DNA from: Chaetoderma sp. LZ-2023a | Lineage: Eukaryota; Mollusca; Caudofoveata; Chaetodermatida; Chaetodermatidae | DNA: 64,000 nt | Assembly: GCA_034401795.1 (NCBI GenBank) | Contig: CM067369.1 | Span: 88,959,312-89,023,311 of the forward strand | Direction: 5' to 3' | Program-made: the position numbers and the translations under genes | Notes under the pieces: model-generated | The model's input: only the letters and a program-made list of their open reading frames with translations | What the model was told of the DNA's origin: nothing | The model's database searches: none | Shown here: positions 16,441-63,009 of the stretch, one piece after another | Position numbering within the stretch: the stretch's first letter is position 1 | Layout: every line of letters begins with the position of its first letter

Positions 16441-16731
16441 TCAACAGCTTCAAATAATATGGCGCTGACTATAATGGCGTAACTAGTTTGTTACAGTGTC
16501 CAAAACTAACAAATAGTTCCAAAAACATTTTGCGATATAATAATCTTTATTAACTTACGAAAACTTTAACCATCGAGTCATGTTCGTGGCGCAGTGCTGG
16601 GCTGTCTCCCTGTCGCAGTAAACATAAGACAATTCCATTGACTCCTCGTTGCCCCTCCACCCAGGAGGATGGGTAACCGTGTAGAAACTAAGAAGATGTG
16701 TCAGAAGTTACCAAATATCTCGCCTTCTTAT
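16441..16731. other. Flank of the provirus, no gene recognised
   Basis: Unique-looking sequence ending in TTAT (16728-16731), which is repeated immediately after the 3' LTR as the target-site duplication. Confidence 0.5.
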
Positions 16732-18323
16732 TGTAGATATCGGATTGTCTTATGGGAAGTCATGACCCCGGTAGACGTCTTATATGTGCAAGTAAGACCT
16801 CAGTGAACTTCTCATATTTGAAAATACCAGGGAATAGTAGCAGTAGCAATTAGAGACGGAGTAGGATGCACTGGTTGACTTTGACCAGTGCTAGTAGTGA
16901 TACAGTTTCGCGGAAATAGGATAGGTTTCACAGAAATAGAATAGGAACCAGATTGAAACTGTAGTAGTATATTCATCATGGTAAGTTAGAAAATAGAATA
17001 GATTGGAATAAGACCAACGGTTCTGAGTTGATGGTGTCTGTCAATAGTTGAAGATAAAAGTGGTTGCTGTGGGATCGGCATACACTTTTATAAATTCAGC
17101 AGTCATTTAGGCCGTTAGTTTAGTAAATAATAGAGTGAGAAGAATAGATACGAAATGATGGGAATCGAGAGAATTATAGGAAACAGACTGACATGTAGTT
17201 GTTGACGATCGGCATTCCGAATCCATTAAGCAAGTACAACAACACCAGCTGGCAATGAGATCATACAGCTCATGTGCTTATTAACGTTCGTTTCCTACAG
17301 GCTTATCCACGATAGGCAAGGGACAGAACAGAGGCATTGTAGCGTCCTGTAGGAATTAATAACACAATCGAAATTTGTATATCAACTATATGTCTATCAA
17401 AGGGAGGCAGGCAACAACAACACATTCCGTAATGTTGTTGGTTAGCTGACAGATCGCATCAAATCAGAACCAGCCAACACCGCTTTGACCCTGTTTTAAG
17501 TTAGCTCCATAGAAGAGAAGCCCAGAGTTTGATTGGCCGAGATGACGTCATAATCAATGAGCATCTAGCCAAACTCTGTGGCAGAGAAACAAAAAGAACT
17601 AAGTTTCAGAGTGGAATCGAAAGATAGGCGAACAGGGATTGGTCAGAACGACCAACAGAAATAGGTACGAACTTCTAGGAAGAGATAAGCAGATGTTGAT
17701 TGGGGGACAAGAGTGTGTGGACCAATCAAGCTGTGGTTATAGCTACCTAGAAGGATGAAAGAAACAGAAGCTATGTATTACGATATATATAGATCTATGT
17801 ATCGTAATATGTATAGAAGTTAGGAAAATGTAAATTGTATATAATAGGCACTTTGTCTATTATGGATAATCTTTTACCATCAGTGATTCGAGTAGGTATC
17901 CGTCTACCTCTGTGAGTTCGCAGCGAAATATAAGCAGTAGTTTAGAATAGCAGTTGCTAGAAATCGTGTAAATTATTCTTAAAATATATACAGTTTAGCC
18001 TTTTATATTCGGCAGCAAAAGTCGAAATTGTTATAAGTATATTAGTAATAAATAGTCATCATAATATAAAGTAGTGAGTCGAAGTTGTATTTTACTCCAG
18101 GAGCACGAAACATCATCGTGCCTTACCTGAATCATTCTGATAAATCAGATAGGCCCGTATTGCTAACAAAATATCTTCACAAAATCGGAAGAGGCGAGCC
18201 AGCAATAAGCACCGCTACAGCGTCGGAAAGATAGATTGTCGCAGCAATCTATTAACCATCATAAGTCTTTCCGTGTCGTAGTGGTCGTCATAATCCTGTG
18301 TAATCGGAGACCGAAAATCTTCA
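16732..18323 (+). repeat. 5' LTR of env-bearing provirus
   Basis: Starts TGTAGATATCGG and ends AATCTTCA. It contains TGACGTCA, several CCAAT-type motifs, a TATATATAG box and AATAAA at 18047-18052. The last two suggest U3 up to about 17810, R to about 18070, then U5. Confidence 0.95.
17531..17792 (+). promoter_or_regulatory. Candidate LTR promoter (CCAAT/CRE/TATA)
   Basis: GATTGG (reverse CCAAT) at 17531, TGACGTCA at 17543-17550, further ATTGG/CCAAT motifs near 17638, 17699 and 17732, then TATATATAG at 17784-17792. The TATA-like box lies in the loop and stem of a hairpin whose arms TATTACGATA and TATCGTAATA (about 17777-17809) are perfect complements. The same array recurs in the 3' LTR. Function is inferred from motif order only. 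Confidence 0.45.
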
Positions 18324-18325
18324 TT

Positions 18326-18343
18326 GGCTTCGTCTGCCAGGAT
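18326..18343 (+). promoter_or_regulatory. Primer-binding-site position
   Basis: Two bases after the 5' LTR the sequence becomes TGGCTTCGTCTGCCAGGA. Its TGG start, complementary to CCA, and its location fit a primer site. I could not match it to a tRNA. Confidence 0.4.
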
Positions 18344-18375
18344 AGGAGTAAAATAAACGCAAACTGTAAGTACTA

Positions 18376-18588
18376 ATGGCCCAAGTAGATCGGCCAGCTA
18401 ATATTGTACTGAAAGACATTGCCGACCGTGTACAGGTATTCGTAGAACTAGCGAAACAATCCGAATCTGCCAAAGTAACTCAGCATAGAGAATACGGTGA
18501 CGATTCATTGATAAAAATAATAACTGACATTAATTGCCCTGAACAACCCCGACTTCAACGAGTAGTAGTGTGTCTGTACTACCGGTAG
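18376..18588 (+). CDS. Short leader ORF upstream of gag
   Basis: A 70-codon frame starting at ATG 18376 and ending TAG 18586-18588, 11 bases before the gag ATG. It begins MAQVDRPANIVLKDIADRVQ and has no recognised domain. A GTAAGT, which fits a splice donor, sits at 18366-18371 just before it. Gag's frame is -1 relative to this one and is open from 18543, so the two overlap by about 45 bases. It could be a real leader peptide, an extra gag N-terminus reached by frameshift, or chance. Confidence 0.4.
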   Translation: MAQVDRPANIVLKDIADRVQVFVELAKQSESAKVTQHREYGDDSLIKIITDINCPEQPRLQRVVVCLYYR

Positions 18589-18599
18589 ACATCTATAAA

Positions 18600-20228
18600 A
18601 TGGCGTCTCCACGTAGACCAACCGTACCAGCCGACCTAGGACCACCTCCAGTAGAGATACCCCAACGAACTGAATTACGACCAGAAACGGTAGCAGCCAT
18701 GCAGACTATGGGGACGGCGATGGCCACTACTATTGTGGATAGCAGTAATAGACGTGAGAACGACCGGGTACATCGACAGGAGATTAGGGAAACCATCCAG
18801 CGAATTCAACCCTGTGATGGTTTATTGCCGGAACAAGTGCGTGCCTTTTTGGAAGACACAAGAAGGGCGTGGGTAGCAAATGCGGGATTATTAGAGGGAG
18901 TACCCGCCTACATAGTCACTAGGGCTGCCCGTGGTCAACTGGCACGAGCGGTAGATGATTTCCTGGTGGGGAAAATAAGGGATGAAGTAACGTTTGAAGA
19001 GTTGAGGGATTATATTACTTCGAATTTCGTGTCATCCAACGAGCAGGAGAGAATAAAGTATGACCTAGAAGGGGTAAGGCAAAGACGAAATGAAACTATA
19101 ATAACCTTTAATAGAAGATATCGAGAATTAGCCAACCGAGCGTACCCGATAGAGAATGTGGACAACAGAAGAACAGTGCTCGGTATATATTTGAAAGCAG
19201 TAAACGACAAGGGACTAAGTAAAAGGATTGTACGCAAGAGGGCGGGAACGTTGGCACGAGCAATAGAAATCGCGGAAGAAGAGGAGACTTACAACGATCT
19301 CCTGAAAGCAATGAGAATAGACGGGAGGTCGGAAGAAAGAATGGAGATCGATGCTTTAGAGCCTGCAGACGAACAAAGCATATGGCAAGTAGTTAATTCG
19401 TTGAAACGTCAAATCACACAGCAAAATAAGATGATCGAAAAACTATGTGGTATAATTGGCGAGATGAAGGTGGACAGTGAAAAACCGCGACAAAGAAATC
19501 AGAGCGAAGTGAAACCAAAGCGACCAACACAACCAGTGCAGAGAGCCGCCCCACACGCACCGCGACAGACGCCCGGGAACAAAAATGCCAATCACATAAC
19601 GTGTTATAATTGTGGACGAATAGGGCACTATAAGAGTGAGTGTAACCAGCCTGCGCAACCACCACGACAAACTCTGTGGCAGAAGAGAGCGCAGAAGCCA
19701 CAACAAAGGGGACAAAGACCGCCCCTAACGTGCTTTACCTGTGGTAAAGAGGGCCACATGGCAAGGGACTGTGTTAGCACTCGGGGGTTGTTTACCGAAG
19801 GAAGTAACCGACCCAAGACAATTACGTGCTTCCGGTGTGGGAAAGATGGACATTTCCTACGCGATTGTCCCAATGCCGGTCCACCAAGGATGGCCAAGCC
19901 ACTACCCCAGAGGGCAAGCAAACGTCCCCGATTAGAAGAATGGGACCTGGACATGCAAGTGGATGAAGTCGGAAATGGTGATAGGCAGTCGAGACCAGAG
20001 ACCACACCGAGGGACTGTTCGCGCAACGTACGGCGCGACATAGCAAATCGAATGAGGGACCCCGACGAATACGAGGACAGGGACGGGTTCATTCTGACGA
20101 GTGAGAACACTGACGAGTATGGAAGATATGGTACTGAACGCGATTCGTCTGGAAGAAGGAATTCGTATGCGGAAGTTGTGAGCGGACGAAGGAGTCCGGT
20201 AAATGGAGACGGAGGAAACCGTTGGTGA
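18600..20228 (+). CDS. gag: Gag polyprotein with three zinc knuckles
   Basis: A 542-residue structural protein. I chose ATG at 18600 (context ATAAAATGG) because the frame upstream holds no ATG before a stop at 18540. The N-terminal part is followed by a capsid-like helical region (about 75-240) with the TFEELRDYI, NRRYRELANRAYP and LGIYLKAV motifs of retrotransposon gag. Three CCHC knuckles follow: CYNCGRIGHYKSEC (about 335-348), CFTCGKEGHMARDC (378-391) and CFRCGKDGHFLRDC (410-423). These bind genomic RNA. Basic and acidic low-complexity sequence ends the protein. Three knuckles is more than most Ty3 elements carry. No internal stop. Confidence 0.93.
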   Translation: MASPRRPTVPADLGPPPVEIPQRTELRPETVAAMQTMGTAMATTIVDSSNRRENDRVHRQEIRETIQRIQPCDGLLPEQVRAFLEDTRRAWVANAGLLEGVPAYIVTRAARGQLARAVDDFLVGKIRDEVTFEELRDYITSNFVSSNEQERIKYDLEGVRQRRNETIITFNRRYRELANRAYPIENVDNRRTVLGIYLKAVNDKGLSKRIVRKRAGTLARAIEIAEEEETYNDLLKAMRIDGRSEERMEIDALEPADEQSIWQVVNSLKRQITQQNKMIEKLCGIIGEMKVDSEKPRQRNQSEVKPKRPTQPVQRAAPHAPRQTPGNKNANHITCYNCGRIGHYKSECNQPAQPPRQTLWQKRAQKPQQRGQRPPLTCFTCGKEGHMARDCVSTRGLFTEGSNRPKTITCFRCGKDGHFLRDCPNAGPPRMAKPLPQRASKRPRLEEWDLDMQVDEVGNGDRQSRPETTPRDCSRNVRRDIANRMRDPDEYEDRDGFILTSENTDEYGRYGTERDSSGRRNSYAEVVSGRRSPVNGDGGNRW

Positions 20229-23200
20229 GGGCACCGACCGAACGGTTTCTGATCCGTCTTAGATTAGAAAGAAACGGTCTTGTGAATAAGGGTGAGTACC
20301 TGCATGCTTTAGTAGATACGGGTGCTAGCACATCCTTAATTCGTAAGGATATTTGGCATAGCATGCTAGATGCTAGGCCGCTAAAACGAGCAAGAACGCT
20401 TTTAGCAGTAAATGGTGCCCCGATAGAACTTTTGGGCGAAACGCAAATCAAATTTGAAAATGCCCGGCCTATTCCCAGTACGGTAGTGGCAAGTATGAGG
20501 CATGAGTGTTTGATTGGAGCGGATGCTTTGCACTTGGGAAATGCAAAGATTGACTATCGGACCAAAGTAGTAGTATGGTTTGGTCAGGTATATCCTTTTA
20601 GGTATCCCTATAGAGAACAATTGCGATATGTGAATGCGAGTTGTAAGGAAACGACCGGATATAAGGATATCGACAAAGTTATAGATGACTTTGCGGATAT
20701 CTTTGATACGGCTCGTCCAAACACTTTAGGATTGGTCCCCAAAGTGAAATGTACGGTACCAACAGGAGATGCTTATCCTATAAGGCAGAAGGCCTACCGT
20801 CTACCGCTAACCAAGCAATATGTGGTCAAGAACCAGGTAAAAGAAATGCTTGACGCGGGCGTCATAAGACCATCGTCATCCCCGTGGGCGTCGCCCATCA
20901 CTTTAGTTCCTAAGAAGGACGGTGACACACGGTTTTGTATTGACTATAGGAAATTGAATTCGGTATGCCGTAAGGACAGTTACCCGCTACCGAATATCTC
21001 TGATATTTTTGATTCGATGCGAGGCGCGACGATCTTTTCTACTATGGACTTGAAGTCTGGATATTGGCAGATACCAATGGCCAGCCAAGACATAGAGAAG
21101 ACGGCGTTCGTCTGCAGCGAAGGTTTGTACGAATGGATTCGTATGCCGTTCGGTTTTTGCAACTCAGGTGCCGTATTTCAAAGGGCGATGAATGACATTT
21201 TCCGGGAATTTGTAGGAAAATGGGTGCATGTGTTCGTAGACGATATAGTCGTATATTCACGAAATCCAACGGAACATGCACAACACTTGCGTAAGGTCAT
21301 GCGCAAGATTCGAGAGTATAATTTGCAAGTGAAAAAGAAGAAATGTGATTTCGCCAGTAAGTCAGTAGACTTGTTAGGATATCGCATTTCAGCACAAGGT
21401 GTAGCTCCTCAGGCTCAGAAGGTCAAGGTCATTAGAGAAATGTCTCCACCCCGAGATGTAGGTGAAGTGAGAAGCTTTCTCGGAGCTACGGGTTATTACC
21501 GATCGTGTGTACAAGGCTACGCCGAAATTGCAAAGCCTCTGATAGAATTGACCAAGAAGTATAAACGTTTTGAGTGGGGTAAGGATGAACAGCAAGCGTT
21601 CAAGAAATTGCAGAACTTGCTGTGTAGTGAGACGGTTCTCACATATCCGAATTTAAATGCCCCTTATAAATTATACACTGACGCGTCTAGTTATGCTATT
21701 GGTGCTATACTGGTACAAGACGATGATAAGGGTATAGAGCGGGTAATTCAGTATGTGAGCTCTACTCTTAAAGATAGTCAGCTTAATTGGCCCGTAATAG
21801 AGGAGGCTTACGCTGTGATCTATGCGTTGAAGAAGCTCCGCCCATATCTATTTGGCGCGCAGTTTACCGTGTACACCGACCACAAACCCCTCAAGAGTTT
21901 GTTTGTGGGTGAGGTGAAGAACACGAAGGTGCAGCGCTGGGCAGTTCTGATTGCTGAGTACGGATGTAAGATTGAGTACATCCAGGGATCGAAGAATATT
22001 CGAGCGGACATGTTGTCCAGGTTGCGTCGTCCTGTGGAGGTCGCCACGTTAGACACGGGCGATTATGTCATACCAGAGGTGGACGAAGGTGTGTTACCAC
22101 ACGTCCCTCTGGAGGTGTATGACGTACCCTACGACGAATTACGTACCGAACAGACCAAGGAATACCCGGAGTTGTTCAAGAACACACCGGAGGAGTATAT
22201 GGTCAAAAACGGTATTTTGTATTCCTTAGTGACACCTTCAGCGTTGGACGCTGAGTACCCCAGAATCGTATTACCTGCCCTGTTCCGTGAGAAAGTGCTC
22301 CGGAAGGCTCATGAGAGAGCCGGTCACCAAGGTCTGAAGAAGACCATCGGCATGGTAAGGGATTCTTTTGTGTGGACGTCTTTAAGGAAAGATGTGGTTC
22401 ATATGATTGAAACGTGTACAACGTGCCAGGTCAACCGACCCGTCACTACACGACCCCAATACAGTGAGATGCCCATGGCTAATTATCCGAGTCAGATAAT
22501 TGGTATGGATTTGATCGGTCCACTGTTGGAGTCAAGCAGAGGTAATGTGTACATCATGACGATAATTGATCACTGTTCTGCATGGGCAGAAGCATACCCA
22601 ATTGCTGCCAAGACATCTCAGAATGTGGAAGACAAGTTCTTTAATGAGTATGTCGCTCGTCATGGTGTCCCTGAAATCTTAATAACGGATCAGGGTAAAG
22701 AATTTTGTTCAAACAATCTGGAAGAACGATTTAAGGAACACGGTATCGATCATAGAAGATCGAGTCCATACCATCCGCAAACGAATGGACGGACCGAGAG
22801 GTTCAATCGTACGCTCAAGGAGCTAATCCAGAAAGGTGTGAATAATGAATCCCGTGCATGGGAGGACGAACTGGGCGCGGCTTTAACAGCATACCGCAGC
22901 TCTCGTCACTCCACGACTGGATATACGCCATTTTATCTGACGTATGGTCGTCGTGCAAGGCTTCCGTTAACTGTCCCACTGGATGCCACGCAGGATCTGG
23001 GTGAAAGACTTACGTGTCTTAATAATGCCTTGCTGCGAGCTCGTGGAGAAACGGCTAAGTCTCGGGAAGTGCACCGAGAACAAATTAACAAGCGTGCACA
23101 CGCTGGTGAATTCAAGGTGGGCGATTCAGTGGTCGTAAAAGCTGAGGAGAGGATGAAATTGACCTCTCGCAGTGACCCTGAGTACGAAATCTTCAAGATC

Positions 23201-23782
23201 AATGGTCCCGTGGCTCATGTCCGACATCAAAGATCTGGGAAAGTGCGCGTACTTAATATATCCAAGATACGTGTAGTGGACTCAGAAATGTGTTGGGACA
23301 AGGTCCGACCACGCCCTATTCGTAACCCTGCTAAAGGTACGAAAGCTAGCCATCACCCTCGAGTGATAGTACCCGAGTCCAAACCATTGCCGGTAAACGA
23401 CTCCAGTGCGACATCGAGTAAGCGAGCTCGTAGGAAGCGACCAGCTTCTGATGAAGAGCCAAGGGTGCGCAGGGGTGGTAAGGGGGTTGATGTAAATATA
23501 GATCAACCTCGTACGAGTCAGATTCGAAACCATGAGTCACCAATGGAAACCCAAGTGACTCCTCGTACTATAATGATGGACACCTCGGAGGATGTACCCG
23601 AGCCTGCCAATGAGCCAATGGAAACGCTTCCAGCTCATCCCTACTTTCTGCGCAAGCGCAGTCTCGCTCATGATGTCTACTCGGACCCTAAGAGACTCAG
23701 GATTGGCGCGTTTGGCCGTGCTCGATATGATGATTTCATCGGTCGTATCGAAGCAGTTATAAGGCGACGTGGCCAGAGATAA
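20138..23782 (+). CDS. pol: Pol: protease-RT-RNase H-integrase
   Basis: Open without stops from 20138 to the TAA at 23780-23782. It is in the -1 frame relative to gag with about 90 bases of overlap, so a -1 ribosomal frameshift is the likely mode of expression. Numbering residues from 20222: protease LVDTGAS (Asp32); RT about 165-395 with PKKDG, MDLKSGYWQIP, and FVDD 338-341; RNase H with YTDAS (Asp487) and YTDHKPL; integrase zinc finger H697, H702, C732, C735; catalytic Asp763, Asp823 and Glu859 with 35-residue spacing (DD35E). A long C-terminal region follows, including a beta-rich KVGDSVVVK segment. No chromodomain is recognised. All catalytic residues are present. Confidence 0.95.
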   Translation, partial: TRFVWKKEFVCGSCERTKESGKWRRRKPLVRAPTERFLIRLRLERNGLVNKGEYLHALVDTGASTSLIRKDIWHSMLDARPLKRARTLLAVNGAPIELLGETQIKFENARPIPSTVVASMRHECLIGADALHLGNAKIDYRTKVVVWFGQVYPFRYPYREQLRYVNASCKETTGYKDIDKVIDDFADIFDTARPNTLGLVPKVKCTVPTGDAYPIRQKAYRLPLTKQYVVKNQVKEMLDAGVIRPSSSPWASPITLVPKKDGDTRFCIDYRKLNSVCRKDSYPLPNISDIFDSMRGATIFSTMDLKSGYWQIPMASQDIEKTAFVCSEGLYEWIRMPFGFCNSGAVFQRAMNDIFREFVGKWVHVFVDDIVVYSRNPTEHAQHLRKVMRKIREYNLQVKKKKCDFASKSVDLLGYRISAQGVAPQAQKVKVIREMSPPRDVGEVRSFLGATGYYRSCVQGYAEIAKPLIELTKKYKRFEWGKDEQQAFKKLQNLLCSETVLTYPNLNAPYKLYTDASSYAIGAILVQDDDKGIERVIQYVSSTLKDSQLNWPVIEEAYAVIYALKKLRPYLFGAQFTVYTDHKPLKSLFVGEVKNTKVQRWAVLIAEYGCKIEYIQGSKNIRADMLSRLRRPVEVATLDTGDYVIPEVDEGVLPHVPLEVYDVPYDELRTEQTKEYPELFKNTPEEYMVKNGILYSLVTPSALDAEYPRIVLPALFREKVLRKAHERAGHQGLKKTIGMVRDSFVWTSLRKDVVHMIETCTTCQVNRPVTTRPQYSEMPMANYPSQIIGMDLIGPLLESSRGNVYIMTIIDHCSAWAEAYPIAAKTSQNVEDKFFNEYVARHGVPEILITDQGKEFCSNNLEERFKEHGIDHRRSSPYHPQTNGRTERFNRTLKELIQKGVNNESRAWEDELGAALTAYRSSRHSTTGYTPFYLTYGRRARLPLTVPLDATQDLGERLTCLNNALLRARGETAKSREVHREQINKRAHAGEFKVGDSVVVKAEERMKLTSRSDPEYEIFKINGPVAHVRHQRSGKVRVLNISKIRVVDSEMCWDKVRPRPIRNPAKGTKASHHPRVIVPESKPLPVNDSSATSSKRARRKRPASDEEPRVRRGGKGVDVNIDQPRTSQIRNHESPMETQVTPRTIMMDTSEDVPEPANEPMETLPAHPYFLRKRSLAHDVYSDPKRLRIGAFGRARYDDFIGRIEAVIRRRGQR
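20214..20220 (+). promoter_or_regulatory. Candidate gag-pol frameshift region
   Basis: In the gag frame the codons GGA AAC precede CGT TGG TGA. With the preceding A the heptamer is A-GGA-AAC, one base from the classical G-GGA-AAC slippery site, and lies just before the gag stop. Pairing in the P site would be imperfect, and I did not establish a downstream structure. Confidence 0.3.
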
Positions 23783-23834
23783 TTTTAATCTCTTCATCAT
23801 CGCTGTACGAGTAGCATAGCATAAGTCTAGCATC

Positions 23835-25718
23835 ATGTATACATTACAGTGGGGTGTGATAGTGATGGTAGTAGGTATAGTACATAGCGTCTGCCGGAAG
23901 TCTAGTATTCATAAGTTACCAAATGGTGTTATGATAACCGATCACCAGGAAATATCATTAATACGGGCGGAATGGACGGTAGTGGTGTCCATAGACCATC
24001 CATATTTGCCTACCGAATTTCTTTACCAAATGATAAAAATTCGTGCGCTCGTGGCGGATATCGGTCTGAAGACTTCTTTAAGCACCAACGACATTATAGG
24101 ACTCCAACGCCGAAGTGATGGCATCAGGAAGATTGCCGTAGGTACACAACAAACAATGCAGAAGCGTAATCTTAGGCGAAGGAAACGGGGACTATTTAAT
24201 TTTGTGGGTGACATAGCGTCATCCTTATTCGGAACTGCTACATCCGGCGACATAGAAGCAATCCGGGATGTAGTGAAGGAGGCGATGAGGAATGTAAACA
24301 GACTGGTCCATTTCTCTAGCAAGTTGGCGTCACACGTGAAACTTGCTTTTAAGGCGATAGACGCCAATATGGATAGAATTAACGACGTAGCGGATAGTTT
24401 GGTGGAGTTAACCGGAAATGTTAGCCGACTGTTCAAGGTACAGGCAACGCGTCAGGCGGAACTGTATGCATTAGTACGTCTCGGGAACCTCATCGATGCA
24501 GCCGAGGATGTGGTAACAAGTTACCAGAAGGCTGCTGCCCAGTTTCATAGGCAAACGGCCTCACTCGAGCTGGGTAGATTGACGGAGGAGTTATTCAGCC
24601 CTAAGGACCTGGCCGAAGTGGCTAAGCAGGTCAGAGTAGGCAACCGTTTAATCCGTCCATACCAATGGTACTACCGAAACGTAGTAGCATATCCCCTGTG
24701 GAGGGACGACGAAAGACTGCATTATATAGCTACATTACCCTTAATCGACGGAGGACAGTATATAGAGTATGGGCTGCATTCATGGCCCGAACCATTGGTC
24801 ACGAGGGGTTACTATATGCAGGTATTAATAGCTAGAACCAGTATTGGACTTGACACTAAGACGGGTTGGTATTTTACGCCATCTGAGTGCCAAGGAAGTA
24901 AGCCCCGAGTATGTCACGGGCAATTAAGGGTCGATAAGACCCACGTGCCGTGCATAGTGAGTCTACTCACTAACACCACCGATAGTACCTGCAATATTAG
25001 ATTGACTGAGTCCAACGAAACGTCTAGTAAAGTATTTGCCCATAAGAAAATAGGTGTGGTTTTGCAAACGTTTGGAGAAACGGTTGAGGTGCACTGCAGC
25101 GGACGACTGACAGACCGGTGTGTGGTGAAGAATGGTGTGTTTGCTTTAATGTCTAGTGAATGTGATTATAGTGGCAAGGGTTGGCGATTTGAGCCAGTAC
25201 AGTCTTATAGTAGGACTTACACTCGAGTCAGTCTGGCCATTGATATGCCACGGTTGGATGTGGCCGGGGTACTAAACCAATCAATGATAGTTGAGCAGTT
25301 AAGTATGCAAAAATGGGACCATTTACAGAAGTCTAAGTACGTGCAGCTAGCACCCTTGTCTGCGGTCGACCCAGCGATGGTCGATGGCATGGGGGTACGG
25401 TCGTTTGTGTCGTATTCGACCGGCTCCTTCGTCGTAGTGATCGTAGTGGTGGTGATATTATGGAAGTGTGGAATAATTTCACGCATGTGGATATGGATTA
25501 AATGCAAGCCACATGCGGCCCAAAGAAGTGCGCCACGGACTATTCGCCCTCTAGGACCCCGGAGACCTGCAGCCCTACCGGAGCCTATGAGGATGTCAGC
25601 CGGGTCGTCGCCTAATGCTGTAGCCAGGACTGAGATCGACCCGACGGCTGACGACTGGATGGACGTGGCAATTGACAATCCTAACATTCGTACATCGTAC
25701 GAGGATTTATCTTTGTAG
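23835..25718 (+). CDS. env: Envelope-like glycoprotein (F-type fusion protein)
   Basis: A 627-residue type I membrane protein predicted to mediate fusion. A hydrophobic N-terminal segment (about residues 5-19) fits a signal peptide. A furin-type site RRKR ends at residue 118 and is followed by GLFNFVGDIASSLFGT, the fusion-peptide layout of errantivirus Env and baculovirus F proteins. Long helices follow (about 135-270), then a Cys-containing ectodomain with several N-x-S/T sites. A membrane anchor lies at about 530-547 (VVVIVVVVILW), with a tail of about 80 residues. It starts 52 bases after the pol stop, so it would need a spliced mRNA. GTAAGT at 18366 and a CTAG just before the ATG are possible donor and acceptor. 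No internal stops. Confidence 0.88.
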   Translation: MYTLQWGVIVMVVGIVHSVCRKSSIHKLPNGVMITDHQEISLIRAEWTVVVSIDHPYLPTEFLYQMIKIRALVADIGLKTSLSTNDIIGLQRRSDGIRKIAVGTQQTMQKRNLRRRKRGLFNFVGDIASSLFGTATSGDIEAIRDVVKEAMRNVNRLVHFSSKLASHVKLAFKAIDANMDRINDVADSLVELTGNVSRLFKVQATRQAELYALVRLGNLIDAAEDVVTSYQKAAAQFHRQTASLELGRLTEELFSPKDLAEVAKQVRVGNRLIRPYQWYYRNVVAYPLWRDDERLHYIATLPLIDGGQYIEYGLHSWPEPLVTRGYYMQVLIARTSIGLDTKTGWYFTPSECQGSKPRVCHGQLRVDKTHVPCIVSLLTNTTDSTCNIRLTESNETSSKVFAHKKIGVVLQTFGETVEVHCSGRLTDRCVVKNGVFALMSSECDYSGKGWRFEPVQSYSRTYTRVSLAIDMPRLDVAGVLNQSMIVEQLSMQKWDHLQKSKYVQLAPLSAVDPAMVDGMGVRSFVSYSTGSFVVVIVVVVILWKCGIISRMWIWIKCKPHAAQRSAPRTIRPLGPRRPAALPEPMRMSAGSSPNAVARTEIDPTADDWMDVAIDNPNIRTSYEDLSL

Positions 25719-25778
25719 CACGAACTTTATTATTGTGCCACGTATTAATTGTTATGAGCATGTATTGTGGATGTCATT

Positions 25779-25997
25779 ATGACCGTTGATATGACCTGTA
25801 ATGATTTAACTGTAGGATTAGGGTTTGTAGCTAGTTATGTATCGTTTAACATGGTATTTTTCGTTAAATATGTTTTATCATTATTATTGATTTTCGCTAT
25901 TGCAGTGTTAACGGAGGACTCCGTTAGCTTGTGGACGTCAGTTATGGGTAGCCCTGGTATAGTGTGGTTTAGTTGTTGGTGGTGCACAACGAGTTAA
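25779..25997 (+). CDS. Small membrane ORF between env and 3' LTR
   Basis: A 72-codon frame from ATG 25779 to TAA 25995-25997, with a hydrophobic stretch (FFVKYVLSLLLIFAIAVL) that could span a membrane. No family recognised. It sits where complex retroviruses place accessory genes, but the length is compatible with chance. Confidence 0.3.
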   Translation: MTVDMTCNDLTVGLGFVASYVSFNMVFFVKYVLSLLLIFAIAVLTEDSVSLWTSVMGSPGIVWFSCWWCTTS

Positions 25998-26036
25998 TTA
26001 TCAATATCTTAAGGCCTTAAGAGATGGTTAATTAAC
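25993..26036. repeat. 44-bp palindrome before the 3' LTR
   Basis: An imperfect palindrome bounded by GTTAATTA and TAATTAAC with the perfect core CTTAAGGCCTTAAG centred near 26014. It lies immediately upstream of the purine-rich GAGGGG (26044-26049) that precedes the LTR. Confidence 0.7.
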
Positions 26037-26053
26037 TTCGGTTGAGGGGCATG

Positions 26054-27645
26054 TGTAGATATCGGATTGTCTTATGGGAAGTCATGACCCCGGTAGACGT
26101 CTTATATGTGCAAGTAAGACCTCAGTGAAATTCTCATATTTGAAAATACCAGGGAATAGTAGCAGTAGCAATTAGAGACGGAGTAGGATGCACTGGTTGA
26201 CTTTGACCAGTGCTAGTAGTGATACAGTTTCGCGGAAATAGGATAGGTTTCACAGAAATAGAATAGGAACCAGATTGAAACTGTAGTAGTATATTCATCA
26301 TGGTAAGTTAGAAAATAGAATAGATTGGAATAAGACCAACGGTTCTGAGTTGATGGTGTCTGTCAATAGTTGAAGATAAAAGTGGTTGCTGTGGGATCGG
26401 CATACACTTTTATAAATTCAGCAGTCATTTAGGCCGTTAGTTTAGTAAATAATAGAGTGAGAAGAATAGATACGAAATGATGGGAATCGAGAGAATTATA
26501 GGAAACAGACTGACATGTAGTTGTTGACGATCGGCATTCCGAATCCCTTAAGCAAGTACAACAACACCAGCTGGCAATGAGATCATACAGCTCATGTGCT
26601 TATTAACGTTCGTTTCCTACAGGCTTATCCACGATAGGCAAGGGACAGAACAGAGGCATTGTAGCGTCCTGTAGGAATTAATAACACAATCGAAATTTGT
26701 ATATCAACTATATGTCTATCAAAGGGAGGCAGGCAACAACAACACATTCCGTAATGTTGTTGGTTAGCTGACAGATCGCATCAAATCAGAACCAGCCAAC
26801 ACCGCTTTGACCCTGTTTTAAGTTAGCTCCATAGAAGAGAAGCCCAGAGTTTGATTGGCCGAGATGACGTCATAATCAATGAGCATCTAGCCAAACTCTG
26901 TGGCAGAGAAACAAAAAGAACTAAGTTTCAGAGTGGAATCGAAAGATAGGCGAACAGGGATTGGTCAGAACGACCAACAGAAATAGGTACGAACTTCTAG
27001 GAAGAGATAAGCAGATGTTGATTGGGGGACAAGAGTGTGTGGACCAATCAAGCTGTGGTTATAGCTACCTAGAAGGATGAAAGAAACAGAAGCTATGTAT
27101 TACGATATATATAGATCTATGTATCGTAATATGTATAGAAGTTAGGAAAATGTAAATTGTATATAATAGGCACTTTGTCTATTATGGATAATCTTTTACC
27201 ATCAGTGATTCGAGTAGGTATCCGTCTACCTCTGTGAGTTCGCAGCGAAATATAAGCAGTAGTTTAGAATAGCAGTTGCTAGAAATCGTGTAAATTATTC
27301 TTAAAATATATACAGTTTAGCCTTTTATATTCGGCAGCAAAAGTCGAAATTGTTATAAGTATATTAGTAATAAATAGTCATCATAATATAAAGTAGTGAG
27401 TCGAAGTTGTATTTTACTCCAGGAGCACGAAACATCATCGTGCCTTACCTGAATCATTCTGATAAATCAGATAGGCCCGTATTGCTAACAAAATATCTTC
27501 ACAAAATCGGAAGAGGCGAGCCAGCAATAAGCACCGCTACAGCGTCGGAAAGATAGATTGTCGCAGCAATCTATTAACCATCATAAGTCTTTCCGTGTCG
27601 TAGTGGTCGTCATAATCCTGTGTAATCGGAGACCGAAAATCTTCA
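26054..27645 (+). repeat. 3' LTR of env-bearing provirus
   Basis: Same length as the 5' LTR, offset 9322 bp. It differs at 26130 and 26547 by my reading. The poly(A) signal AATAAA is at 27369-27374. It is followed by the TTAT target duplication. Confidence 0.95.
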
Positions 27646-30130
27646 TTATGTTGCCACAAGACCCGGCTTGCCCTGGATAAATATTCTGTGAAAGAATAAT
27701 GCCCAAGCCATGCACATATATAGAGCAAGAGCTATCAGAAGATAGCAAATAGCTTACTTGTATATATTAATTGTACAAGGCATGATATCATTGACCACCG
27801 GATACAGTCTCATTTTGAAATGACAATCTACCTTCCGAATGTCAAATGATCCAAACATGAGCAAAATTCAAACTTATGCATAATAATATAATGCAGATTA
27901 CATTTAGACAGCTTATAGAGCAAAACGAAACATTTGATCTAAATCGGATAAGTATTTGCTGATTAAATTGTCATTTGAAAAAATCTTAGCCACAGCATAA
28001 GAGGAAGAAGCGGGGTTAAAATTAGTACTAAATAATCACCGTTCAAATGCTGTAAAAGCAGGCTAGTCCAAAGAATACTACATAAAAATCGGTGACGTTT
28101 TATTGGAATGGGATAACCACCTGTTAAATGTAAATGTTGTTTAACAAAACTTAACGGCAGCACAAACCTTACCCTGGCCCGGGAAAATAGTTCAAACTGC
28201 GTAAAAGTAAGGAAAATCCCGAAAATGTAAATAATTTGGATGCAGTGTATTTCTAAACTTCGAAATCTATGAAGCTTTCTTGAAATCGAATAGCCCCTAG
28301 TTAATGTAAATGTTGTTTGAAAAAGCTTAGCTAGAGCTGACATCGACGCACACACCAAAGCCGACGCCAGGGCTGATGCCGACGCCGGCATTGTTCCACA
28401 CACCACACATATATCACCTCTTCGTGAAGGCAAGATAAAAACGAGAACAGATACCTACCAGTAATGAACACGGGGATGCCGGAAGCAAATGTGATGGGTG
28501 GGGGCAGGTTCCACAATAGGGCACGCTGGATGGCATTGTTTGGACGAAGATATTAAATGGGTGCCCCACCCCTCCCTCCCAGCCCTGTTCGAGGATACCC
28601 ACCTACCTAACCACCGCGAGAAAAAACATTGAAAGGGGCAGGCTAAATTTCCTGCATTCTGAGTTTCTTATGATTAATGTTAATCGAAGAACTTATGTAT
28701 TCTTTGGTCAATTGAATCTATTCACAATTCACAATGTGAGCGATCGGGCAGGCGGGTTGTGTTAGATGCACACGTTGATTGTGCGTGCATTCGTGCATGT
28801 GTCTGCATGGTGGACCTGCACAGTTTGCCTCGAAAATATTTAATAGGACCTTAGTTCGTAATTATATTTCCAATCAGCAGCATTCAGAGGAAACGTGGTT
28901 TTTGGGAAAACTAGGTTATCCAAAACAAATCTACCAATCATGCTGAACATGCGAGAAAGGTTTGTTCAGTTCTTGCCGTAGATGAAGACCATGAGGTTTC
29001 TTGAGTTTCATGTCCAGCAGTTTCACAGGTCTTTAAATGTAAATAGAACAAAATCCAAGATGGCCACCAACAAAATCGATCAAGCAGCTTTCCGAGGCCA
29101 AGCCTGGATGTGACCTTATGGATCCTTCCTGCCCAGCAGTTCTTAAGGACTCGCTTAAAGAATACGATGGACATATGCTGGATGAATAGACAGATGAGGT
29201 AGCAACACAATTACGTCAAATTAGTAACACACTATTCAATAGCTAGTGTGTATGGAATAAGTAATGCAAATTATGATTTCGCAGCCTCTTACTTAGCCAT
29301 ATTGACGTGTGGGTGCCAGATGCACATTTGGCCCGGGCTATTCAAAGGTGACCTTCAAATGTCAGATTTTGTTTACGTGTGGATGGTGCTATCATCTTTT
29401 ATGGTTAGAACTCAAAGGGGTGGCTATGGCTAAACATGTGTATCATTAGCGAGTTGGTAGGTGTTGGGGCTGCGGGGGGGGGGGGCGTGAACTCATACTC
29501 ATATAACTAGCACAGTATTAAAAATCCAAGAAGATGATATTTATTACTTAGAGGTGCGTGCGTGCGTGCGTGTGGGTGGGGGGGGGGGGTGAACAACAAA
29601 TGTTAGACACATTGCTCAAATACACCCATCGACAATGCACTTCGGCCATGTGTATACAAATTATTTCTACCGTTGCGTCCGCTTCACACGTCAATTAAAA
29701 ATTTGAGTTTAAGAGTTGCTGTTAATTCTAATATCCCCTAGTGTGTCCGCATTGCTGCACCCGACCGGCCATCATTGCACATATATTCGATTCTACTTAC
29801 TAAGCAATGCATTAGCGGAGCGTGGACCAGTATCAATTCAAAAATTCAAATAGCCTATGACTGTATCTTACCTTTACTTGCAAAGATACATGCAATGTTT
29901 ACATATAAAAAGTCAATATGTCACATGTAACTGCCACTACATAAATAGCGTTTGCGTTTGCGTTGATGATTTAATTCAGCCTAGAAGCACTCCCATACAG
30001 AGCTGGATTTACGCAAGGGCTGGCGGGGCTGAAGCCCTGGGGCCCCCACTGTTTGGGGCCCCCTAAAATGTGCACTAAATTTTTTTTGTCCATTGTAATT
30101 ATTTTATAATAACAATGTGTAACTTTAAAG
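27646..30130. other. Intergenic; no gene recognised
   Basis: Starts with the TTAT duplication. A diverged short duplication shares GTTAATGTAAATGTTGTTT-like blocks (near 28120 and 28300). Low-complexity G runs and GCGT units occur at 29470-29590. No protein family recognised. Confidence 0.5.
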
Positions 30131-32688: not shown

Positions 32689-35600
32689 TGACCGCAACAC
32701 ACTGCTGGTATTATCAGTGTTAATTCACTCGTTGTTGGTGCTCTTCGCTATTTACTTGTCATAATTTGATATCGTTTGCTTGACTAGATTTGATTGACTT
32801 TGCTCAGGGACCAAACATCCTCCTACTCTCACCACAACCACAACCCGCACCATCCTCATCCGTCTTCTTCTTTTTCTTCTTCTTTGTACTCCCTGACAGT
32901 TGTCTTCAAATGTGCAGACACATTTCTTCTATATATGCCGTGATACAGGTTGGATCTTTCAGCGTCCTGTGAAGTTTTGGATGCAGTTTTGAGTTCGGAT
33001 TCCAAACATTTGCTTCTATGGTTGCATAAAGCGGGTGATACTGTCGGGAATTCTGTGCATTTCCTGGTCCTTATTGGCAAGGGCAGCGCGCGGAATCTCA
33101 TAATCAGAATTTACTGAATAAACGGTGTCTTAATCTGCTAAAACCAGTTCACAATCTGAAGATGGTTATACACTCCTTACCATTAAGTTAGTAGGAATCC
33201 TCTGGGCTATAGTTTGGATGTGCCAAATACCAAATACCACTCTTTAGTGATAGCAGACTTGACGGTGGTTGCATCTGTCTAGATCAAACCAGTCTCTGAT
33301 TGTGCACTGTCCCATCCTTCCTTGGTCACGGTATCAGATTGGCCATGTACATGTTTTGCAGTCGCCTGGGATCAATTGCAAATCTGTTTCCTTTTGTGTT
33401 CTGTCCTAGTTGAAGGAGATATGCCATTACTGTGTCCTGTTGTACGGATTTCTGGTTTAGACGTGCCTGTAATGGAGATTTTCCATCAGTTTAGGACTAT
33501 GCTCCTGTTATAAAATTCCCTATCTGCAGCATTTCCGTTGCTTCTTCTAGAGCTGTTGTCCCGGCTTTATATTTTGCGGAATACTTTTTCAGTAGAAATA
33601 GACTGTTCACAGTTTTCCATTTTGTTCCATCCGTTTGTCCATCTCTAATAACATCTTTCACCGATCAGTCTGTATAGACTTGTAACCATTTTACTTTGGG
33701 ATATTTAGTTTCAATCATCACTAAGGCAAGTTCTGTTCTGGGGGAGGCGGGTGGGGGTGGGGGGGGGGGGGGGGGTGGGGTGGGTGGGTGGGTGCGGGTT
33801 GACATTTCAAGTTTATCACGTGACGTCATCATGAATGACGTGGATATGACGTAGATAAGTTCGCTTAATTGATGGCGGACTAAGCGTTGTACGAATTCTA
33901 TGTCTACTATTTAATACGCATTCTGTTGAATATTTTGAAATCATAGCTATAGGCAGCAACAACGCCAAGTCAAATTAGTTTGAAATTATTCAACAGCTTA
34001 CCCGTGTAGGTTTCTGGGAATTGATAGTTAGGGAGTTCAGAGATCTATCGAACGATGGGTGGAGCTTAGCTAGAGGTGGACGGAGCATAGTTAGAACTGG
34101 GTTCCTCCATTCAGAGTGTGTGGTAAGTGGTTCAGTAACCAGAGAGGTGTGCGTTTAGGCTTGATTCAACTTGTTTTGCTGACTGAAGAAAGCATGGCCT
34201 TCTTAGTGTGTCCCATGCAGACATCTTGTCTCTTTGATGCATAGCGTGACTGTGAAGCATGTAGAGCTGTGAGAACTATGAGAGCATCTTTGTCTTCTTT
34301 CTATCTTCCATAGATTTTATGCCCATTAAAGTTTCCACTCCATTGATATGTGGTTTCTGAAGAGCATCTTCATTATCATCATCATCATTATCACCAATCG
34401 TCGTCGTGGTCGTCGCCGCCGTCATCGTCGTCAATCATCATCATCATCATCATCGTTACCATCATCATACCTGACTCAATGCCAGTGACGAGCTTCCAAG
34501 CGCCAACACGTATAGCCGCCTGCACACGTGTGTCAAACGCATGATCCATCCATGCTCTGACTGGTACCCGAGTTAATGGGTCTATGTTATGCAGAATCTC
34601 TGCTCTAGGGCTCGGTAGACCTTTGCTATCAAACATAAATGAAGAGCAAACATAGTGTTTAGCCTCCTGCATTATATAGACAATAACAGCCATATGTATG
34701 GTTAATACTGCTGCGGTAGCCGTATGCGTTAACAACCTTAATATTATGTCTCAAGGAAGACGGAAATATTTATCAATACTTCAAAATTTTCTTATGCTCG
34801 GCGTACACCTTAATACTCAACTAGTTGGCGACTAGTTGTGCAAAAAGTCTTAAGGTGTACGCCGCGAATTAGAATATCAACTGAATACAATTAGGACTTG
34901 GAAAACTCGCAATAAACCCACACTATAAGATGTGATTATACCTGGGCAAACTGATCAAGAAACATATGCTAATGGAGAATGCGGGAGATGCACGGCCTCC
35001 AATCTGAAATTAAAACCCATAACTTAAAAAAACCCCAATTTCTAAGGAGATAGTCTTTCTGGGAACGCGTCCCTCTGTCCGCCACTTCAAATAGTGGCAT
35101 TGGCTAGCCTGGGTAAGCGGGTTACAGCTACATCGACTAAAACGTGGACTCGAGGAATACTTCGAAGGTAAAATACGACACGGATAATAATATTCTTGAA
35201 AATTTACGCGACAAAAGGTTGTTAACAGAACGGCTACTAGAGTGTAGAACGCAAGCGTATACAGCTTGACCTGGTTGACCAACCAGAACCTGGCACTAAG
35301 GTAACCGAATCTGTGACTACATGCCACTAACACGCACAATATGTAATATGTAAACATTGTTTTCACGCTCTACATATGCATATTCAGCAGAAATTACAAA
35401 TTAAGAATATATTTTTTCTTAAATGTGTGACTAAATGGTCTGCCACTCAATTATCTGACGTCATAATTAAATATCGTAACACAAACATTGAAACGTCTGT
35501 CACGAAGGTGTATGAATTCAACTTTCCAGAGTATCCATCTATCATCTGGCGTCATATGACGTCATATTCAGGTAAGCGGCGTGTAGGATGACGTCATAAC

Positions 35601-38600
35601 CATTATGTCAAATGATTCTATCTGGCCCGTCTTTAACTCCTAATAGTCCGACACGTTGTTAGAATTGTATGTCTCTACTATTTAATAAACTTGCTGTTGA
35701 ATATTTTGAAACTAATTTGACTGGACGATGTTGCTGCCATAGGCAGCAACAGCGCCCAGTCAAATTAGTTCCAAAATATCCAATAGCTTACCTCTATAGT
35801 TTTCTGGAAATTGATAGTCAGAGAGTTCAGAGATCGATCGCTCCTAACACGAGCGAGGTTTGGCAGTGGAGCTTAGCTAGAGATGAGCGGGGCATAGCTA
35901 CAAATGGAGACGTCCATTATCTAACGTCATAATTAAATATCTTAGCTAAAAAAATCGAAAAGTATGTCACGAAGGCGTACGAAGTGTATGTTGCCGTGGA
36001 ATGCACAACGTAATAAACATTCTGTTTTATATTTTGAAAATGATTTGACTCAGAGCAGCTGTTACCACCTATAGGCAACACCCCCCCCCCCAGCCATTCA
36101 ACGTAGTTTCAAAATATTCAACAGATTTCCCATAAAGTTACTTTGGAAATTTAGATCCTGGGAATTCGAGTTTCAAAGTTTCAAATCCATTCAAATATGC
36201 ATAAAAGTAGAGGCGGAGCTTATTTAGAAATGGGCGGAGAATAGCTAGAAATGTATCCCTCTATTATCAGTTCTGTTTCTATGTCCCGTGACGTGAAATA
36301 TTCCTACAGCAATTATTACCTGATTGTTTGCCATTGATCATATCCATCCAGGTGCTTAGTGCCATTCAGGTCACCTCCTACAAGCTTGATAACGGTCGGG
36401 AACCAATCCGAGATGTGTATCAGTTCCTGGTGCAATCTGCCTTGAGCAATGGGAGGGTAATGCACAAAGGCTGGCACACGAATTCCACCCTCGAATAAAT
36501 TACTTTTTCCACCTCTTAGTGGAAAATTGCTTCCTCCAAATTCGGGATCGGCGCCATTATCTGCCATAANNNNNNNNNNNNNNNNNNNNNNNNNNNNNNN
36601 NNNNNNNNNNNNNNNNNNNNNNNNNNNNNNNNNNNNNNNNNNNNNNNNNNNNNNNNNNNNNNNNNNNNNNNNNNNNNNNNNNNNNNNNNNNNNNNNNNNN
36701 NNNNNNNNNNNNNNNNNNNNNNNNNNNNNNNNNNNNNNNNNNNNNNNNNNNNNNNNNNNNNNNNNNNNNNNNNNNNNNNNNNNNNNNNNNNNNNNNNNNN
36801 NNNNNNNNNNNNNNNNNNNNNNNNNNNNNNNNNNNNNNNNNNNNNNNNNNNNNNNNNNNNNNNNNNNNNNNNNNNNNNNNNNNNNNNNNNNNNNNNNNNN
36901 NNNNNNNNNNNNNNNNNNNNNNNNNNNNNNNNNNNNNNNNNNNNNNNNNNNNNNNNNNNNNNNNNNNNNNNNNNNNNNNNNNNNNNNNNNNNNNNNNNNN
37001 NNNNNNNNNNNNNNNNNNNNNNNNNNNNNNNNNNNNNNNNNNNNNNNNNNNNNNNNNNNNNNNNNNNNNACGACACGACGATGTTCATTGAAACGTCTGT
37101 CACGAAGGTGTATGAATTCAACTTTCCAGAGTATCCATCTATCATCTGGCGTCATATGACGTCATATTCAGGTAAGCGGCGTGTAGGATGACGTCATAAC
37201 CATTATGTCAAATGATTCTATCTGGCCCGTCTTTAACTCCTAATAGTCCGACACGTTGTTAGAATTGTATGTCTCTACTATTTAATAAACTTGCTGTTGA
37301 ATATTTTGAAACTAATTTGACTGGACGATGTTGCTGCCATAGGCAGCAACAGCGCCCAGTCAAATTAGTTCCAAAATATCCAATAGCTTACCTCTATAGT
37401 TTTCTGGAAATTGATAGTCAGAGAGTTCAGAGATCGATCGCTCCTAACACGAGCGAGGTTTGGCAGTGGAGCTTAGCTAGAGATGAGCGGGGCATAGCTA
37501 CAAATGGAGACGTCCATTATCTAACGTCATAATTAAATATCTTAGCTAAAAAAATCGAAAAGTATGTCACGAAGGCGTACGAAGTGTATGTTGCCGTGGA
37601 ATGCACAACGTAATAAACATTCTGTTTTATATTTTGAAAATGATTTGACTCAGAGCAGCTGTTACCACCTATAGGCAACACCCCCCCCCCCAGCCATTCA
37701 ACGTAGTTTCAAAATATTCAACAGATTTCCCATAAAGTTACTTTGGAAATTTAGATCCTGGGAATTCGAGTTTCAAAGTTTCAAATCCATTCAAATATGC
37801 ATAAAAGTAGAGGCGGAGCTTATTTAGAAATGGGCGGAGAATAGCTAGAAATGTATCCCTCTATTATCAGTTCTGTTTCTATGTCCCGTGACGTGAAATA
37901 TTCCTACAGCAATTATTACCTGATTGTTGCCATTGATCATATCCATCCAGGTGCTTAGTGCCATTCAGGTCACCTCCTACAAGCTTGATAACGGTCGGGA
38001 ACCAATCCGAGATGTGTATCAGTTCCTGGTGCAATCTGCCTTGAGCAATGGGAGGGTAATGCACAAAGGCTGGCACACGAATTCCACCCTCGAATAAATT
38101 ACTTTTTCCACCTCTTAGTGGAAAATTGCTTCCTCCAATTCGGGATCGGCGCCATTATCTGCCATAAAAATACAAATACATGGACCTGATCTGGCAAAGA
38201 AAGTATGCCATTTCTGATGGTTTTGTCGCCGGAAATGATGCCATGTACCCAAGATTTGTCAGAGTGATCCGATGAAACAGAAATGTAGTTCCTTGATTGA
38301 AAGGGTATTAGCATGTTGGGAGTCTATGACTTTGAATTCAGAAATTCATATGTTCCGGCAGATTATTGCGAGTGATACTCGCCATTGAATATTAAATATG
38401 AAATCCGTATACTTGCGTATAATTTGTCCAAGTCGTGTCTGATTTAAAGCCAACCACCGGTTAATAAATATGCATAATTATTATTAGGTAAGTATATTTC
38501 TCAGAAAATTTCGATGACAATAGATGCTCTGAAAACTGATTTCATGCATTCTGAGAAGGAAACCAATATATGATTATTAGCTCACCACCTCGGATTAGCC

Positions 38601-41122: not shown

Positions 41123-41191
<69 letters not shown>

Positions 41192-43155: not shown

Positions 43156-43197
<42 letters not shown>

Positions 43198-44096
43198 GTT
43201 ATTATTATCATTCGCGTTAGTGTACGCGCGTGCGTGACTGCCCGCGTGCGTGTATGCGTGTCTGTGAGTGCTAGCACCAATAAACACCGTAGAATGAGTC
43301 ATATCCTCTGTATGTTGGTGTGAACTTCTCCTTGTAGAAACCCAGGTGCCATTTGCCAACCAGATGGGTGGTGTATCCAGCGTCACGCAGCTTCTCGGGT
43401 AATAATGGACTATCTGTGGGCAAGGCTTCGGCTTTCTGGTTCTCAAACGTATAATGTTGCATTCCATTGTGAATCTGTAAATATATCACTTTCAAGCACG
43501 AGGTCTAAACATCTCAATTTGATAGCAGTATTCTAACTAAGTCTGATGTCATACAAATGCCATGGACTCGGAAGTGTAGTATCTTCATTTTATGACGGCA
43601 GATTTGTATGATTATGACGTCATCATTAATTCTTGACCAACAACATTGGAGTATTTTCATTTAGCAATCGCTTATCCCTTTAACACTTAAAGACCAAAAT
43701 GACAAATCTTTATGATGTAAGGAATATTCTGCTGAATATATTGAAACAAATATGATTGGGAGCTATTCCTGCAGCAGGTTCCAGGCGAGTTAGTTTCAAA
43801 ACATTCAACGGCTTTGCTATATAGGTGTCTTGAAACGGAAATACTGGGATTCAGTAGTTGAAGGGTTAACAAACAGGTGGAGACGCAAGTACGTCATCAT
43901 TTAACAAGCCTATGAAACACCAACCTAAAAATAGGGGTGTGGCTTTGTACCGAGAATACGTCTCTAACGTAATAACCGGCCATCTTGTTACGTCATCACA
44001 ACGACTAGACTATTACAAACTCCACCTCCGAGACAAGACAGGTCCATACTGTAAACGTACCACTATATATCGTGTTGATTTGGTATCATCTTAACA

Positions 44097-44165
<69 letters not shown>

Positions 44166-61541: not shown

Positions 61542-61719
<178 letters not shown>

Positions 61720-61796
61720 TACACACACCTCGTGAAATTCGGAGAGGAACATTGGGTTTTGTTGGATGACATTTAGTCGGGGTTGAGGTGTGTGTA

Positions 61797-62098
<302 letters not shown>

Positions 62099-62227
62099 TA
62101 CACACACCTCAACCCCGACTAAATGTCATCCAACAAAACCCAATGTTCCTCTCCGAATTTCACGAGGTGTGTGTAGTATATATATATATTATATATATTT
62201 ATATATATATATATATATATGACCGTA

Positions 62228-62637: not shown

Positions 62638-63009
<372 letters not shown>

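What the first reader, a model, noticed from the sequence alone, without database searches (positions are those of the whole stretch)
16732..27645. Recently inserted, coding-complete env-bearing Ty3/gypsy provirus
Both LTRs are 1592 bp with only two differences found by eye, there is a 4-bp TTAT duplication, and gag, pol and env have no internal stops; every catalytic residue I looked for is present. Outside insects, intact Ty3-group elements with an env gene are rarely reported, so a young one in a probable mollusc may be an active and possibly infectious lineage.
Basis: partly seen in the sequence, partly recalled or inferred. Interest (0 to 1): 0.88.

Follow-up and report, generated by a model that had tools for sequence, protein, structure and literature searches.

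The report
Young errantivirus-like provirus with hidden gene
This is a recently inserted copy of a many-copy, retrovirus-like jumping element that carries capsid, enzyme and baculovirus-F-like entry genes plus a small extra gene that selection has preserved across copies; the family likely still moves between cells, although this particular copy has lost one codon in its RNase H and is likely impaired.

Summary
Two 1592-bp LTRs differ at 2 sites, flanked by a TTAT duplication, with open gag, pol and env. Env is F-type (Baculo_F just above cut-off; furin-type site, fusion-peptide-like segment, membrane anchor). The host genome (2.44 Gb, species not identified) holds a large family: 34 of 70 scored env matches are near full length without a stop, and 4 of 19 other dated copies have identical LTRs. 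Across 20 copies env dN/dS is 0.16, which favours a lineage that needs Env, though the copies were ranked by Env similarity.

(1) A 70-codon ORF between the primer-binding site and gag (18376-18588) is under strong purifying selection: 33 of 50 changes are synonymous (null mean 14). It has no Pfam relative and is not sORF2/FAST-like. (2) This copy lacks one RNase H codon beside an invariant glutamate, present in 120 of 120 homologs and 11 of 11 sister copies examined, so open frames do not mean functional.

Insertions fit the YRYRYR rule of gypsy in 12 of 14 copies; the window copy is one of the two exceptions. Env-bearing Ty3/gypsy elements outside insects are reported as widespread. Infectivity, expression and insertion polymorphism were not tested.

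The parts
16728..16731 (.). target-site duplication TTAT, 5' side
   Evidence: read from sequence
16732..18323 (+). 5' LTR, 1592 bp, TG...CA
18325..18342 (+). presumed primer-binding site (TGG... one base after the LTR); primer tRNA not assigned
   Evidence: sequence; assignment inferred
18366..18371 (+). candidate splice donor GTAAGT, 10 nt before the leader-ORF ATG
   Evidence: same context in 29 of 39 other copies' 5' pieces, GTRAGT with changed context printed for 3 more, not seen in 7
18600..20228 (+). gag from its first ATG, 542 aa, Retrotrans_gag-like core (below Pfam cut-off), three CCHC zinc knuckles
20138..23782 (+). pol frame (-1 relative to gag, 91-nt overlap): protease, RT, RNase H, integrase
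21780..21830 (+). RNase H segment in which this copy lacks one codon beside an invariant glutamate
   Evidence: 120 of 120 homologs have a residue there; 11 of 11 sister copies examined have it
23835..25718 (+). env, 627 aa, F-type: N-terminal hydrophobic leader, furin-type site before GLFNFVG, six family-invariant cysteines, membrane anchor about residues 524-549
26044..26049 (+). short purine run (GAGGGG) before the 3' LTR, presumed polypurine tract
   Evidence: sequence; function inferred
26054..27645 (+). 3' LTR, 1592 bp, 2 mismatches to the 5' LTR
27646..27649 (.). target-site duplication TTAT, 3' side

Best explanation
This is a recently inserted member of a many-copy, errantivirus-like Ty3/gypsy family whose baculovirus-F-like Env and whose small leader gene are both preserved by selection, so the family likely spreads as an enveloped particle, while this copy, one RNase H codon short, is likely impaired. 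Proposed cycle, with each step marked. The LTR is predicted to drive one full-length RNA. On it the leader ORF comes first, and Gag would be reached by leaky scanning or re-initiation (inferred: leader AUG in a weaker context with C at -3, gag AUG in a strong one, 9-11 nt between the leader stop and the gag AUG). Pol would be made by -1 frameshifting in the 91-nt overlap (inferred; no canonical slippery heptamer found). Env would be made from a spliced RNA whose donor just before the leader AUG removes both the leader ORF and gag, so the env AUG comes first (inferred from the conserved donor). Env would be cut by furin and drive membrane fusion (inferred from motifs and homology). New copies integrate with a 4-bp duplication at YRYRYR-type sites, commonly CAYRTG (shown from copies). 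The role of the leader protein is unknown; I judge an accessory protein made from the genomic RNA most likely, acting before or beside Gag.
For: LTR, TSD and ORF anatomy. Pol domains, with Ty3 as best solved relative (E 3.9e-114). Env: Baculo_F 24.3 bits against a cut-off of 24.1; 6 homologs, all pre-annotated PF12259; the Env profile hits the solved 'fusion protein' 9w4d at E 2.4e-11. Family: 70 scored env matches, 34 near full length without stop. LTR ages: 0 differences in 4 of 19 other copies, at most 3 mismatches in 9 of 19. dN/dS: env 0.163 over 190 pairs of 20 copies, pol tail 0.130 over 120 pairs of 16 copies. Leader ORF: pN/pS 0.129 in frame against 0.78 and 2.49 in the other frames, 21 copies; 33 of 50 changes synonymous, null maximum 27 in 5000; open in 16 of 16 joined leaders; 56-64% protein identity in 8 of 11 further, more divergent matches and 75-95% in the other 3. 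Target site: C before the duplication in 38 of 38 genomic 5' flanks, YRYRYR in 12 of 14 complete targets.
Against: No RNA, protein or particle evidence. The 20 env copies were ranked by protein score, which favours low dN, so the env ratio is biased low, and it is higher (0.214) among the 63 close pairs with dS under 0.1; the leader ORF was not part of that ranking. The Env model is poor (mean pLDDT 53). The Baculo_F hit barely passes its cut-off. The window copy's own target, CTTATG, breaks YRYRYR at one base. Strict CAYRTG holds in only 9 of 14 complete targets. Pol was not placed in a tree with named references. 36 of 70 env matches are incomplete or carry stops, so many copies are decaying. 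One old copy has a stop in the leader ORF and another a frameshift.
Confidence: 0.8

Rival explanations
1. A retrotransposon family that moves only within the germline cell and carries env as a passenger.
For: 36 of 70 env matches are truncated or carry stops. Insect lineages are known to have lost env and gone on as retroelements (PMC12992720, section 7 read).
Against: Env dN/dS 0.16 across 20 copies, close to the pol tail's 0.13. The RRRKR cleavage motif is unchanged in 19 of 20 copies.
Confidence: 0.12
2. The leader ORF is not a separate protein but the first exon of Env, spliced in frame from inside it, as in the ZAM and Beagle groups of insects.
For: Codons 1-20 are the most constrained part (pN/pS 0.025). 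Some AGs just upstream of the env ATG could accept in frame (read from the sequence printed).
Against: Codons 21-50 and 51-70 are also constrained (0.179 and 0.152, 15 copies). The best donor, GTRAGT, lies before the leader ATG and is widely conserved. An in-frame stop lies 4 or 6 codons before the env ATG in 20 of 20 copies, so only the nearest acceptors would work.
Confidence: 0.2
3. An ordinary dead fossil that only looks intact.
For: Private one-codon loss in RNase H.
Against: Two LTR differences in 1592 bp and all frames open. The family has copies with identical LTRs.
Confidence: 0.1

Closest known systems
Insect errantiviruses / iERVs (gypsy, ZAM groups; PMC12992720, section 7 and passages read)
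   Same: gag, pol and F-type env order; furin site, fusion peptide, conserved cysteines and membrane anchor in Env; YRYRYR-type target as reported for gypsy (PMC9427105, passage read)
   Different: 70-codon leader ORF conserved along its whole length; Pol placement not tested; host not identified; PMC9427105 speaks of a six-nucleotide duplication for gypsy, here it is four
Metazoan env-carrying gypsy elements (Chary and Hayashi 2025, eLife 108449; paper not held, known only through passages of PMC13172572 and PMC12859917)
   Same: env-bearing Ty3/gypsy, reported as widespread across animal phyla
   Different: I could not compare sequences or check whether they list this family or its leader ORF
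MDG1-group retrotransposons with sORF1 and sORF2 (PMC11952523, abstract and passages read)
   Same: small accessory ORFs upstream of gag, reported there with low non-synonymous rates; sORF2 about 70 aa
   Different: here there is one ORF, with no transmembrane segment or N-myristoylation motif, and the element has an env
Baculovirus F / Baculo_F family (PF12259)
   Same: Env family match, cleavage site and fusion-peptide-like motif
   Different: weak direct match; carried by a retroelement
Ty3 (7q5b)
   Same: best solved relative of Pol, E 3.9e-114
   Different: no env (recalled)

Membership tests
Errantivirus-like env-bearing Ty3/gypsy | Ty3/gypsy domain order PR-RT-RNase H-integrase | tested here: met
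Errantivirus-like env-bearing Ty3/gypsy | F-type Env with furin site, fusion peptide, membrane anchor, conserved cysteines | tested here: met
Errantivirus-like env-bearing Ty3/gypsy | short duplication at a YRYRYR-type target | tested here: met
   4-bp TSD in the window copy and 13 of 19 other copies; YRYRYR in 12 of these 14 targets; the window's own target CTTATG is one of the two exceptions
Errantivirus-like env-bearing Ty3/gypsy | Env from a spliced subgenomic RNA | not testable with these tools
   only a conserved donor was seen; no transcripts
Errantivirus-like env-bearing Ty3/gypsy | Pol falls in the gypsy/gypsy clade | not tested
   none of the 120 listed Pol homologs carried an informative name
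Errantivirus-like env-bearing Ty3/gypsy | infectious particles | not testable with these tools
   no experiment possible
MDG1-type sORF2/FAST-like protein | transmembrane segment and N-myristoylation motif | tested here: not met
   maximum hydropathy 0.83 over 19 residues, second residue not glycine
ZAM/Beagle-type Env leader exon | short peptide exon spliced in frame to env | tested here: inconclusive
   in-frame joins look possible by eye, but constraint covers the whole ORF; no transcripts

The most novel reading that the evidence does not exclude
An env-bearing animal metavirus family carries an unrecognised fourth gene. It encodes a 70-residue helix-plus-sheet leader protein, unlike any Pfam family, that the virus needs in every cycle and that is switched off in the env message by splicing just upstream of its start codon.
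Probability: 0.5. Interest if true: 0.72.

Novelty: new variant of a known kind. Interest (0 to 1): 0.52.

Why it matters
Env-bearing Ty3/gypsy elements are the animal parallel to retroviruses. A family with many young copies, with Env and a tiny leader protein both under selection, offers a natural case for asking how such elements pass between cells. A conserved gene hidden in the leader suggests that small accessory proteins upstream of gag may be more common in these viruses than the env-less MDG1 group alone shows. It also cautions that 'no stops' is not the same as functional.

Tried and rejected
Clade placement by named relatives: none of the 120 Pol homologs listed had an informative name, so no tree was made. 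Viral-contig scans with Pol, its nearest relative and a Pol alignment confirmed no relative; the Env alignment had no stretch conserved enough to scan with. The Env structure model was too poor to rely on (mean pLDDT 53); its BFVD matches include baculovirus fusion proteins but at TM-scores of about 0.2, so I give them no weight. The leader-ORF model (single sequence, mean pLDDT 72) has no significant fold match (best E 0.19). dsRNA-binding-like topology was considered and not adopted for lack of support. An FAST-like fusogen was rejected. The primer tRNA was not assigned; the likeness of some copies' primer-binding sites to an arginine tRNA is recalled, not tested. No canonical slippery heptamer was found in the gag-pol overlap. 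No empty allele of this locus was seen: its left flank matches in full only itself. The right-flank search, a cox1 search for the host, the empty-site test for a copy on an unplaced contig, and a genome count of the leader ORF did not complete. Passages of PMC8905726 and the abstract of PMC12440569 were seen and gave nothing on env-bearing elements.

Full report
Observation. The two LTRs (16732-18323, 26054-27645) are 1592 bp each and differ at two positions without gaps; the element is flanked by TTAT on both sides and begins and ends TG...CA. At assumed neutral rates of 1e-9 to 1e-8 per site per year (my assumption, no rate for this host) two differences correspond to roughly 60,000-600,000 years. 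Gag, pol and env are open. Pol is in the -1 frame relative to gag, with a 91-nt overlap.

What the proteins are. Gag has three CCHC knuckles and a below-cut-off Retrotrans_gag match. Pol carries protease, RT, RNase H and integrase (protease below Pfam's cut-off); its best solved relative is Ty3. Of 7976 scored candidates 4560 match it at E <= 1e-10, the best at 63% identity (only 120 are listed). Of 193 columns that are at least 90% conserved in those 120, this Pol departs at 9, one of them in the RT motif, where 8 of 120 homologs have the same residue as here. Env matches Baculo_F at 24.3 bits against a cut-off of 24.1. All six database relatives found (7998 candidates scored) carry PF12259. 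With them this Env shares an arginine at the cleavage site, the LFG-A-T motif and six cysteines without exception, and their joint profile matches two solved 'fusion protein' sequences (E 2.4e-11 and 9.9e-10; organism not given by the tool).

A lesion in this copy. In the RNase H domain the window copy is one codon short, directly beside a glutamate invariant in 120 of 120 homologs; all 120 have a residue at the missing position. Eleven of 11 sister copies examined (of 19 others held; 11 fetched) lack this loss. It is thus private to this copy among those seen. That it impairs the enzyme is inferred from its place next to what I recall as an active-site glutamate. An assembly error cannot be excluded without reads.

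The family in its own genome. Env finds 70 scored matches among 4742 first-look candidates, a lower bound; 42 of 70 have no stop, and 34 of 70 are also near full length (counted from the table). For 19 other copies I compared LTR pairs: 4 of 19 show no difference and 9 of 19 at most three mismatches. Thirteen of 19 have a 4-bp duplication. Of the other six, two are the halves of a tandem sharing an LTR, two more have internal sequence after the 3' LTR, one has an LTR end that does not align, and one, with identical LTRs, has unlike flanks. For copies 21-40 only the 5' pieces were fetched; their LTR pairs were not compared.

Selection on Env and Pol. Among the 20 best copies (18 of 20 stop-free) the env dN/dS, as a ratio of sums, is 0.163 over 190 pairs, 0.214 over the 63 pairs with dS under 0.1, and 0.09-0.22 for each of 19 copies against the window copy. 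The last 481 codons of pol give 0.130 over 120 pairs of 16 copies; four were dropped because the tail did not align without gaps. The copies were ranked by Env protein score, which lowers dN, so the env figure is a lower estimate.

A hidden gene in the leader. Between the primer-binding site and gag lies an ORF of 70 codons, 18376-18588. With the start motif it was found in 26 of 40 copies, and by protein match in 11 of the other 14, 37 of 40 in all; in the three without a match the leader may lie outside the fetched piece. Over codons 1-50 in 21 copies (five of 26 dropped: four short, one frameshifted) pN/pS is 0.129, against 0.78 and 2.49 in the other two frames. Of 50 inferred changes 33 are synonymous; 5000 random draws gave a mean of 14.2 and a maximum of 27. 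In 16 of 16 copies whose leader was read to the end (15 of 19 others fetched) the ORF is open over 70 codons (73 in one), and its stop lies 9-11 nt before the gag ATG in the 14 of 16 where that ATG was recognised by its motif. Among the 11 further matches 8 are 56-64% identical in protein and 3 are 75-95%; dN/dS is 0.09-0.32 in the 7 of 11 where dS (0.8-3.2) could be computed; one old copy has a stop. No Pfam or PADLOC relative and no significant PDB profile or fold match was found. A single-sequence model suggests a helix followed by three strands (mean pLDDT 72).

How Env is likely made. A donor GTAAGT at 18366 lies 10 nt before the leader ATG. Its context is found exactly in the 5' pieces of 29 of 39 other copies, GTRAGT with a changed context is printed for three more, and it was not seen in seven. 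Splicing from it would remove the leader ORF and gag and bring the env ATG first. This is inferred. In insects the env exon is joined to different upstream exons by subclade, including a short-peptide exon upstream of gag (PMC12992720, section 7), so an in-frame join from inside the leader ORF is a live rival.

Target choice. Of 39 copies with a readable 5' flank one is tandem-internal; in the other 38 the base before the duplication is C in 38 of 38, and the next four read AYRT in 27 of 38. In the 14 copies with a full duplication, the window's included, G follows it in 14 of 14; the six-base target is YRYRYR in 12 of 14 and CAYRTG in 9 of 14. YRYRYR is the reported target of gypsy (PMC9427105, passage). 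The window copy's target, CTTATG, breaks the pattern at one base.

What is known. [quoted passage not shown] The kind is therefore known. Small ORFs upstream of gag with low non-synonymous rates are known in the env-less MDG1 group (PMC11952523); there sORF2 is a membrane protein, which this one does not look like. My searches for a comparable ORF in env-bearing elements (listings, of which I opened only PMC12992720 and PMC11952523) showed me none beyond the insect Env leader exons. That is not proof of absence.

Verdict. A genuine, young, errantivirus-like provirus of a successful family; the copy itself is likely impaired; the most interesting part is the conserved leader gene.

Noticed in passing
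window 35486-38167: A 1,084-bp repeat, 99.8% identical, on either side of a 500-N gap (36570-37069): probably a false duplication at an assembly gap.
   Followed up: no
window about 36300-44600, minus strand: Exon-like ORFs resembling an arylsulfatase (judged by eye from the translation, no search made).
   Followed up: no
L006 and L008 (G000 C10); also L015 and L018: Tandem elements sharing an LTR, with one duplication around the whole tandem in the first case: LTR recombination between copies.
   Followed up: partly
L016 with its 5' piece L035: Leader belongs to a divergent subfamily while env is 91% identical to the window's: a likely recombinant between subfamilies.
   Followed up: partly
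5' pieces L021-L039: At least two kinds of primer-binding site within one family, one resembling an arginine tRNA end (recalled), the window's kind unassigned.
   Followed up: partly
window 61543-63008: Long TA dinucleotide arrays within a region of inverted repeats.
   Followed up: no
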